NCBI GenBank assembly: GCA_036405135.1
Contig: DASWYF010000022.1
Span: 248,001 to 312,000, forward strand
DNA length: 64,000 nt
Direction of reading: 5' to 3'
Source: Verrucomicrobiia bacterium
Lineage (GTDB): Bacteria > Verrucomicrobiota > Verrucomicrobiia > Limisphaerales > JAEYXS01
Position 1 is the first letter of the stretch; each line of letters opens with the position of its first letter. Shown in pieces: positions 37,959 through 40,803 of this stretch. A program made the translations under genes and the position numbers. The notes under the pieces were generated by a model, which did no database searches, was not told the DNA's origin, and saw nothing but the letters and a program-made list of their open reading frames with translations.

Positions 37959-38573
37959 GTGATCGACCTAGAGTCCATAAGGCTGCGAATCGAAGCCAGC
38001 GTGGCGGGCGCACAAGTGACGCTGGTGCCGAATGACTCGCCTGCCGCCCAGCCGTCGCTCTTGGTGGAGGGTGCGCATGGTCTCGCGATCGCCTTATTTT
38101 TGCGCGATGATGCGGAACTGCGTTTTGACTATTGCTCCAATGCGACGGGGGTTGATTGGCTGGATACCGAGCTGAAAGTGAAGGTCAAGCAGGTGGTGGA
38201 TGGTGTGGAGAAAGAGGTCGAGCAAGTGACTAAAAAGCCCGGCTATCTGGAAACGGTCTATCATCTGTATTCGATGGAGAAACGGCATGGGCCGCTGATC
38301 TTGCGGATGCGTACTAGGAATCGTGCGGGTGAAGCGAAACTGCCATCGCTGACATCGGTCTGGCGCAGTTGTGAGTTTCAGGAGCGCGAGATTTACGATC
38401 TTTACGGCATCGAGTTCATCGGGCATCCGGATTTACGCCGCATCTTGATGTGGGATGGGTTCAAGGATCATCCGATGCGGAAAGATTACGTGGAGCCGGA
38501 TGATTACGAGTACGAGCCGACGCCACACGATGAGGTGCTGGAGAAGGCGAAGGAGCATTATCCTGGCAGTTGA
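37959..38573 (+). CDS. nuoC: NADH-quinone oxidoreductase subunit C
   Basis: A peripheral-arm subunit, separate here and not fused to NuoD. The family signature is in ERE-type segment [20 protein letters not shown] followed by [21 protein letters not shown] 37959 is the start. Unlike most operons, nuoD does not follow directly: a 543-base interval carrying a toxin-antitoxin pair intervenes. Confidence 0.95.
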
Positions 38574-38613
38574 ACGGCATAGACATTGCATATAAGAAGC
38601 CTAAATTATCTGT

Positions 38614-38805
38614 ATGAGCAGCAAAGAAATAGCGATGGAGATCATCCGGAAACTGCCGGACGAGGCGTCCTTGCAGGAGATCTCGGATGAGATCGAGTTT
38701 GTGGCTGGAATCAGGCAGGGAGCGATGGAACTGGATCGGGGCGAGTCTGTCTCGGCAGATGAGATACTGAAGCGCATACCCGCATGGGCGAACTCTACAA
38801 AGTAG
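38614..38805 (+). CDS. Antitoxin of a RelE/ParE-type toxin-antitoxin module
   Basis: A 63-aa acidic protein (KEIAMEIIRKLPDEASLQEI, then QGAMELDRGESVSADEIL and KRIPAW). This pattern is common in small antitoxins placed before ParE/RelE toxins; identification rests on that pattern and on the overlap with the toxin gene by 22 bases. The antitoxin would neutralise the toxin and repress the pair. It sits inside the nuo operon, between nuoC and nuoD. Confidence 0.75.
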   Translation: MSSKEIAMEIIRKLPDEASLQEISDEIEFVAGIRQGAMELDRGESVSADEILKRIPAWANSTK

Positions 38806-39107
38806 TCTTTTCGCCACAAGCGGTCAGAGACATTGAATCGATTGTCCGCCATATCGCCTTGCAAGCATCTCCGCAAATCGCAGAGGCCTTTGGTGTGAAG
38901 CTGGTTGGCAAGGCTTTGAGCTTGGAAGCACTTCCGCTCAGAGGCCGGGTGGTTCCGGAAGTGGGGATGCCTTTTCGGGAAATCATTTTTCGCAGTTATC
39001 GGATCGTGTTCCGGATAGTTGGTGAACGGGTTGAGATAGTCCGGTTTTGGCATGCGGCGCGTGGGATCCCGCAGATTGATTCGGATGATTTTGGCAATCC
39101 TGGTTGA
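38784..39107 (+). CDS. ParE/RelE-family toxin
   Basis: A 107-aa toxin of the RelE/ParE superfamily: YKVVFSPQAVRDIESIVRHI at the N-terminus, LPLRGRVVPEVG in the middle and the C-terminal strands YRIVFRIVGERVEIVRFWHA. ParE members poison gyrase and RelE members cleave mRNA on the ribosome; this one is closer to ParE in the opening segment, but the target is not decided by sequence. It starts inside the antitoxin gene and ends 9 bases before nuoD, so the pair is transcribed with the respiratory genes. Confidence 0.85.
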   Translation: MGELYKVVFSPQAVRDIESIVRHIALQASPQIAEAFGVKLVGKALSLEALPLRGRVVPEVGMPFREIIFRSYRIVFRIVGERVEIVRFWHAARGIPQIDSDDFGNPG

Positions 39108-39116
39108 ACTTATTCA

Positions 39117-40274
39117 ATGGAAGCTACGCTGACCAATAGTGACAAGACTGCCGAGGCCACGATTGAGGCTGGTGTCGGCGATCTGCTGGAAGTGTCCATG
39201 GGGCCGCATCATCCGTCCACGCACGGCGTTTTCCGCATGGATGTGGTGCTGGATGGTGAGCGGGTGGTGAAGCTCAAGCCAGTGTTCGGTTATCTGCATC
39301 GTAATCATGAGAAGATCGCGGAGGGGGCGAGTTACCTAGCCTCGATGCCTTACACAGACCGGCTCGATTACTTTTGCTCGATGACGAATAACTGGGCTTA
39401 CGCGTTGTCTGTCGAGAAGCTGGCTGGGCTGCAAGTGCCGGAGCGTGCGGAGTATATCCGCCTCATCACGGCGGAGCTGACGCGATTGGTGAATCACACG
39501 TGTTTGCTGGGCTTTTTAGTGCAGGACATGGGCGCGCTCGGCACGCCCCTCATGTATGCCTTCCGTGAACGCGAGAAGATTCTCGATCTGTTCGAGTCGC
39601 TGAGCGGGGCGCGCATGATGTGCAATTACATGCGCTTCGGAGGTTGCCGCTGTGATCTGCCGACGGGCTGGCTGGAGCAGGCGCAGAAGGTGGTGGATGA
39701 GTATCCGCGTTTTCTGGATGAATACGAACGCTTGCTCATGGGGAATGAAATCCTCATGGCGCGCAGTCAAAATGTGGGGGTGCTGCCCAAGGCTCTGGCG
39801 ATTAGTGCGGGCATCACTGGCCCGATGCTGCGGGCGAGCGGGGTGAACTACGACATCCGCAAGGTGGATAAATACGGCATCTACGACCGCTTCAATTTCC
39901 GTGTGCCGCTTGGCGAACATGGTGATGTTTATGATCGACTGATGATCCGGTTGCTGGAGATGCGGGAATCACTGGGGATTTTGCAGCAGGCGTTGAAAGC
40001 CATTCCTGAAGGGCCGATCATTGATCCGAAGGCGAAGTTGCGTGGCTTCAAACCGAAGGCAGGCGAGGCTTATGGACGCATCGAAGCGCCGAAGGGCGAA
40101 CTGGGTTTTTATCTGATCAGTGATGGCACGCCGAATCCGTATCGCTACCGCATACGTCCGCCGAGTTTCATCAATTTGACGATTCTTGAGGACATGTGCC
40201 TCGGTCATACGGTGGCGGATGTGGTGATCATCTTGGGTAGTGTGGATATCGTGCTCGGTGAGGTGGATCGGTAA
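39117..40274 (+). CDS. nuoD: NADH-quinone oxidoreductase subunit D
   Basis: A 49-kDa-type subunit that forms the quinone site with NuoB. Family motifs are [27 protein letters not shown] and the C-terminal [12 protein letters not shown]. The 385-aa length is normal, with about 20 extra residues before the first conserved strand. It begins just after the toxin gene and is followed within 5 bases by the macro-domain gene. Confidence 0.97.
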
Positions 40275-40278
40275 TAAT

Positions 40279-40803
40279 ATGCGTTGGCTACTCAAACAGA
40301 CTAACTTGCTCGACGAACCGGCAGATGTGCTCGTCTGTTCGGCCAACGTGAGTCTGAACTTATCTGGCGGTGTCGGTGCGGAATTGTTAGGGCGCTATGG
40401 AAATGAGATGCAGAAGACTTTGCATGCGGTCATTCACGGGCGTAGCCCACGGGCGGCGAAGTGTGGCGAAGTGATCGCGTATTCCGGTGCTGAATTGCCT
40501 TACAAAGCGGTGCTGCATGCGGTGGCCATCGATGGCTGGTATAAGAGCAGCCCGCAGATAATCACGGATATCACGCGCAAAGCGTTGAAGATGGCGGCGG
40601 GTTATGGGGCTAAGCGAGTGGCGTTTACGGTGCTGGCAACCGGCTTTGGCAACCTGTCCTTGGCCGAGTTTGCCCAAGGGGTAAGGCCGATATTGGGTGA
40701 TGAATTTCCTCCCGTTGGGGAAGTGGTGTTTGGTCTGTTGCTCGACTTTCAAGTGGCGGAGATGGCGCAACATTTTCCAGAGTTAGAAACTTGTAACGTT
40801 TAA
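40279..40803 (+). CDS. Macro-domain protein (ADP-ribose-binding fold)
   Basis: A 174-aa single macro domain. The ligand loop is seen as ADVLVCSANVSLNLSGGVGA, then VLHAVAIDGW and the second loop VLATGFGNLSLAEFAQGV. Macro domains bind or hydrolyse ADP-ribose and related NAD products. The start is ATG 40279 (MRWLLKQTN); an upstream in-frame start inside nuoD is unlikely. It is not a complex I subunit, yet it lies 4 bases after nuoD and 6 bases before nuoI. It may respond to NAD-derived metabolites, an inference from position only. Confidence 0.8.
   Translation: MRWLLKQTNLLDEPADVLVCSANVSLNLSGGVGAELLGRYGNEMQKTLHAVIHGRSPRAAKCGEVIAYSGAELPYKAVLHAVAIDGWYKSSPQIITDITRKALKMAAGYGAKRVAFTVLATGFGNLSLAEFAQGVRPILGDEFPPVGEVVFGLLLDFQVAEMAQHFPELETCNV

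What the first reader, a model, noticed from the sequence alone, without database searches (positions are those of the whole stretch)
38614..39107. Toxin-antitoxin pair inserted inside the nuo operon
A ParE/RelE-type toxin and its overlapping antitoxin fill the 543-base interval between nuoC and nuoD, with only 9 bases before nuoD. The pair would be cotranscribed with respiration genes, which could link toxin levels to operon expression or stabilise the locus.
Basis: partly seen in the sequence, partly recalled or inferred. Interest (0 to 1): 0.62.

Follow-up and report, generated by a model that had tools for sequence, protein, structure and literature searches.

The report
Toxin-antitoxin cassette inside respiration operon
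A small ParE-type toxin gene and its antitoxin, carrying what looks like their own promoter, have inserted between two genes for respiratory complex I in a Verrucomicrobiota bacterium; this is a clear new example of a known habit of such gene pairs, with the extra twist that three distant relatives carry closely related pairs at exactly the same spot.

Summary
Between nuoC (stop at 38573) and nuoD (ATG at 39117) lie a 63-aa antitoxin gene (38614-38805) and a 107-aa toxin gene (38784-39107), overlapping by 22 bases, 9 bases before nuoD. The toxin is ParE-type (Pfam E 3e-17; model closest to solved ParE). The antitoxin matches no Pfam, NCBIfam or solved structure. A same-genus genome has the empty site: nuoC and nuoD overlap as ATGA, and the insertion replaced about 63 bases there with about 580. 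Of 320 genomes of the order (Limisphaerales), only three carry this close toxin clade. They belong to three families, all three pairs sit between nuoC and nuoD, and all are intact. The pair is not simply an extra nuo cistron. In 66 related pairs the antitoxin is preceded by a conserved promoter pattern, predicting a leaderless transcript; a weaker version is present in the window. Related pairs also sit in other gene pairs (hom-lysC, obg-trpS, cas7-cas4, DUF1553-DUF1501). Best reading: a self-contained, self-maintaining TA cassette lodged in an operon junction, with no demonstrated respiratory role. TA pairs inserted in operons are already described, so this is a new member of a known kind.

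The parts
37959..38573 (+). nuoC (upstream flank); its last codons, which hold the nuoD Shine-Dalgarno and ATGA overlap in relatives, are changed here
   Evidence: ORF and homology to nuoC of relatives; left breakpoint against the same-genus empty site at about 38574
38575..39154 (+). Approximate inserted/rewritten stretch relative to the same-genus empty site (replaces about 63 bases of L005, 1435-1497)
   Evidence: Flank alignments to L005
38580..38607 (+). Predicted promoter: TAGACA (38580-38585), 16-base spacer, TAAATT (38602-38607), 6 bases before the antitoxin ATG, so a leaderless transcript is predicted
   Evidence: Consensus scan (4 found against 2.4 expected in shuffles, so weak alone); conserved position in 66 related modules (44/66 against 6/50 control genes)
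38614..38805 (+). Antitoxin gene, 63 aa, no Pfam/NCBIfam family; model is three helices
38784..39107 (+). ParE-type toxin gene, 107 aa; overlaps the antitoxin ORF by 22 bases
   Evidence: Pfam PF05016 E 3.2e-17; fold closest to ParE; profile match to 6x0a ParE E 1.9e-9
39117..40274 (+). nuoD (downstream flank), 9 bases after the toxin stop; its first 13 codons or so differ from the same-genus nuoD

Best explanation
This is a self-contained type II toxin-antitoxin cassette (own promoter, antitoxin, ParE-like toxin) inserted at the nuoC/nuoD junction of the complex I operon. Shown: the pair, its intactness, the empty site in a same-genus genome, the recurrence at the same place in three families, and the conserved promoter pattern of its relatives. 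Inferred: the antitoxin is made in excess from a leaderless transcript and neutralises a ParE-like toxin that would poison DNA gyrase. Also inferred: the cassette is kept mainly because it is self-maintaining and tolerated, since its internal promoter and the short toxin-nuoD spacing keep nuoD and later genes expressed. Transcripts from nuoA are expected to read into it, and its own promoter to read into nuoD-N, as a by-product rather than as a dedicated respiratory control.
For: Toxin family and fold. Paired antitoxin in the same order and overlap in 66 loci. Empty junction in the same genus and NTGA overlap in most relatives. Same-place pairs in three of 320 genomes, all intact with excess third-position change. 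Conserved TTG at -35 and xAxxxT at -12 to -7 before the antitoxin ATG. Unrelated host gene pairs for the same family, with upstream stop 35-78 bases before the antitoxin and the next gene often within about 11 bases of the toxin stop. No terminator between nuoC and the pair. TA pairs inserted in operons without functional link are described in PMC7167474.
Against: No toxicity, neutralisation or transcript data exist here. The promoter match in the window itself is only 9 of 12 and near the shuffled expectation. The antitoxin has no known family or fold match, so neutralisation and autorepression are assumed by analogy. Gyrase as target is assumed from ParE relatives; ParE-like toxins are not all tested. 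Many relatives of the module are not in tight co-directional gene pairs.
Confidence: 0.62

Rival explanations
1. The pair is a functional part of nuo regulation: nuo transcription sets toxin and antitoxin levels, or the TA promoter tunes nuoD-N, linking respiration to growth arrest.
For: Same strand, no terminator, 9-base spacing to nuoD and loss of the relatives' GGAGGTGA before nuoD, so nuoD translation may depend on toxin translation. Same place in three families.
Against: Same-genus and most other genomes lack it, many with an ATGA or GTGA stop-start junction. The family sits in many unrelated operons, and other unrelated small genes sit in nuo gaps.
Confidence: 0.15
2. The pair is an inactive or domesticated leftover that is carried neutrally.
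For: Related modules elsewhere are broken by frameshifts or stops (L133, L135 and others). Patchy distribution.
Against: All three nuo copies are full length. Third-position differences (0.51-0.69) exceed second-position differences (0.08-0.21), and the family's invariant residues are kept.
Confidence: 0.12
3. The pair works as abortive phage defence or as an anti-addiction copy against related incoming TA systems, and its position is incidental.
For: Relatives of the pair lie in CRISPR-cas operons and on Nostoc plasmids. The own genome holds two further homologues.
Against: No PADLOC match for the pair; the immediate neighbours are nuo genes.
Confidence: 0.11

Closest known systems
mazEF in relA-mazG, yafNO behind dinB, parDE in relA-mazG of Salmonella, ccd in folA-apaH (reviewed in PMC7167474)
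   Same: Type II TA pair inserted into a junction of an unrelated operon; TA-free strains keep an undisturbed bicistronic operon
   Different: Here the host is the complex I operon of a Verrucomicrobiota order, with closely related pairs at the same junction in three families and a conserved leaderless-type promoter across the module family
MNT-HEPN module inserted in the lysine biosynthesis operon of Thermus thermophilus HB8 but not HB27 (PMC2701414)
   Same: TA-like module inside a biosynthetic operon, absent in a close relative
   Different: Different toxin class; the passage read reports no recurrence at the same junction
parDE (ParE toxins such as Mesorhizobium opportunistum 6x0a, PaaA2-ParE2 5cw7)
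   Same: Toxin sequence and predicted fold; antitoxin gene first, overlapping ORFs
   Different: Antitoxin has no ParD, PaaA or other known family match
Leaderless TA transcripts of Mycobacterium tuberculosis (PMC3898074)
   Same: TA promoters placed so that the mRNA starts at the antitoxin start codon
   Different: There measured by 5'-end mapping; here only predicted from aligned leaders

Membership tests
ParE toxin family (Pfam PF05016) | Profile match above the curated cut-off over most of the domain | tested here: met
   63.3 bits against cut-off 23, residues 7-93 on positions 1-87 of 89
ParE toxin family (Pfam PF05016) | ParE fold closer than RelE fold | tested here: met
   The top PDB hits are chains of ParDE, PaaA2-ParE2 and related toxin-antitoxin complexes; RelE chains follow from rank 23; model mean pLDDT 82
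ParE toxin family (Pfam PF05016) | Inhibition of DNA gyrase | not testable with these tools
   No assay
ParDE system | ParD-type (ribbon-helix-helix) antitoxin | tested here: not met
   No Pfam or NCBIfam match; model shows three helices and no N-terminal strand; no fold match at E 0.001
RelE mRNA interferase (TIGR02385) | Match above the NCBIfam cut-off | tested here: not met
   17.6 bits against 27.9
Type II toxin-antitoxin module | Two small adjacent, overlapping genes, antitoxin first, inherited together | tested here: met
   22-base overlap; pair recognised together in 66 of 72 loci examined
Type II toxin-antitoxin module | Toxin arrests growth and antitoxin protein neutralises it | not testable with these tools
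   No assay
Type II toxin-antitoxin module | Own autoregulated promoter | tested here: inconclusive
   Promoter pattern conserved across the family, weak in the window; autoregulation not tested

The most novel reading that the evidence does not exclude
The subfamily found between nuoC and nuoD inserts preferentially at overlapping stop-start (NTGA) junctions of operons by an undescribed route, so that closely related cassettes hit the same nuoC/nuoD junction at least three times independently, each spanning just the -35 box to the toxin stop.
Probability: 0.12. Interest if true: 0.72.

Novelty: new member of a known kind. Interest (0 to 1): 0.4.

Why it matters
How small TA pairs move and settle in chromosomes is stated to be unresolved (PMC7167474). 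This family offers many filled and empty junctions in one bacterial order, including the same nuo junction filled in three families and empty in a same-genus genome, so insertion boundaries, promoter use and the cost to a respiratory operon can be measured directly. It also points to an antitoxin type with no known family.

Tried and rejected
Transfer of the whole nuoC-TA-nuoD block between families was tested by windowed DNA identity of the flanks. The TA-bearing genomes are not consistently closer to each other than to others near the pair, apart from raised values for one of three pairs (L004-L029, about the 90th percentile in the bins flanking the pair), so recent block transfer is not supported. 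A single ancient insertion with vertical descent needs 12 losses on the nuo tree, against 3 changes by parsimony, and many empty junctions keep an ATGA or GTGA overlap, so repeated gain is preferred but not proven. The antitoxin as ParD, RelB or another known family: no support. RelE-type RNase: not supported. A strong terminator isolating the pair from nuoC: none found. A PADLOC defence label: none. Searches failed on coordinates or options and were redone. A literature search for papers naming TA together with nuoC and nuoD gave only two unrelated papers.

Full report
What is there. The window lies in a 5.8 Mb genome of the order Limisphaerales (order named from records that match searched genomes). 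Its nuo operon runs nuoA (36945), nuoB, nuoC, nuoD, a macro-domain gene, nuoI, nuoH and on. Between the nuoC stop (38573) and the nuoD ATG (39117) lie two ORFs on the same strand, 38614-38805 (63 aa) and 38784-39107 (107 aa), overlapping by 22 bases, with 9 bases to nuoD. The finding's coordinates are exact.

What the proteins are. The 107-aa protein matches Pfam ParE_toxin (E 3.2e-17) and only weakly RelE_StbE, below its cut-off. A three-sequence profile finds solved ParE toxins (6x0a E 1.9e-9). An AlphaFold model (mean pLDDT 82) is closest to ParE chains in the PDB, with RelE ranking lower. The 63-aa protein has no Pfam, NCBIfam or PADLOC family. It is modelled as three helices (pLDDT 85) with no significant fold match. 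It is conserved across Verrucomicrobiota and beyond, with invariant L14, P15, E28, L40, G43 and W58, and a similar pair is on Nostoc plasmids.

Comparison with relatives. A search of 320 genomes of the order with the toxin gave three strong matches (E below 1e-38): the window's genome, G024 and G020, in three different families. The next matches are near 50% identity. In all three genomes the pair lies between nuoC and nuoD. Toxins are 60-66% and antitoxins 67-70% identical to the window's. Third codon positions differ much more than second positions (0.51-0.69 against 0.08-0.21), so the pairs are old and held under constraint. They form a clade (SH-aLRT 87) whose sister modules, L133 and L135, lie elsewhere and have broken toxins; L133 lies upstream of selA.

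Gain or loss. A same-genus genome, G001, has no pair: nuoC and nuoD overlap as GGAGGTGAAGCCATGAGC. Aligning flanks, the window matches G001 up to base 38574 and again from about 39155. About 63 bases, including the old nuoD start and about 19 codons, were therefore replaced by about 580 bases, with no target duplication seen. Of 58 junctions, 20 keep an in-frame ATGA overlap and many more show GTGA. On a nuo protein tree the three carriers sit in separate places beside non-carriers: 3 changes by parsimony, or 12 losses if a single origin is forced. Flank identities do not show block transfer. Repeated gain at one junction is the simplest reading, but a single old origin is not excluded.

Own promoter. 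Aligning 66 leaders of the module family at the antitoxin start without gaps shows TTG centred at -35, an xAxxxT hexamer at -12 to -7 and C at -1. 44 of 66 have xAxxxT exactly there, against 6 of 50 control genes in the window and about 5% of random positions. A -10 box ending 6 bases before ATG predicts an mRNA starting at or next to the ATG. In the window this is TAGACA-16-TAAATT at 38580-38607, a weak match that gains weight only from its conserved place. In G024 it is TTGTCA-17-TATCAT. Leaderless TA transcripts are known from M. tuberculosis (PMC3898074).

A habit of the family. Other members lie between homoserine dehydrogenase and aspartate kinase (toxin stop 2 bases before the kinase), Obg and trpS, cas7 and cas4, DUF1553 and DUF1501 (including a paralogue in the window's own genome), an aldo/keto reductase and a molybdopterin oxidoreductase, before ribD, and after ilvD, purC and cas3. 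Identified upstream genes end 35-78 bases before the antitoxin, just enough for the promoter, and the next gene often starts within about 11 bases of the toxin stop. This is not universal: with a rough gene caller, 16 of 66 modules had both neighbours confidently co-directional. The sample is the best hits, not an unbiased set.

Function. The most likely account is a working, self-maintaining TA cassette tolerated inside nuo because it supplies its own promoter and leaves the downstream genes readable. Toxicity, neutralisation, gyrase as target and autorepression are inferences from ParE relatives. A respiratory role is possible but has no support beyond position.

Known background. TA pairs sitting in operon junctions with undisturbed operons in TA-free strains are described for mazEF, yafNO, parDE and ccd (PMC7167474) and for MNT-HEPN in Thermus (PMC2701414). 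The present case is a new member of that kind. The new parts are the host junction, its recurrence in three families, the conserved leader and the unnamed antitoxin type.

Noticed in passing
window 40279-40803: A macro-domain gene (Pfam Macro E 2.5e-13) fills the gap between nuoD and nuoI; the same-genus genome has only 18 bases there, so this genome appears to have gained two genes within about 2.2 kb of the nuo operon. Closest relative in the order is 58% identical in G021.
   Followed up: partly
L026:2657-3312: A MazE-like antitoxin and PIN-domain toxin pair sits between nuoD and nuoI in another family (G005), an independent TA insertion in the nuo operon.
   Followed up: partly
L006, L038, L033 (nuoC-nuoD gap); L057, L061 (nuoD-nuoI gap): Other small genes fill nuo gaps in relatives: a 71-aa gene without Pfam family (two families), a DUF6036/DUF2204 nucleotidyltransferase-like gene, and PDDEXK_3 genes.
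   Followed up: partly
L075, L097, L122, L082, L081, L077, L093, L101: Relatives of this TA pair lie inside CRISPR-cas operons, for example between cas7 and cas4 or after cas3, in several families; they might guard or simply ride with the operon.
   Followed up: partly
L088, L093, L111, L115, L117 leaders: Several antitoxin leaders hold palindrome-like TTGCCA..TGGCAA or CTTGCCAAG at the -35 region, possibly an operator for autorepression; seen by eye, not scored.
   Followed up: no
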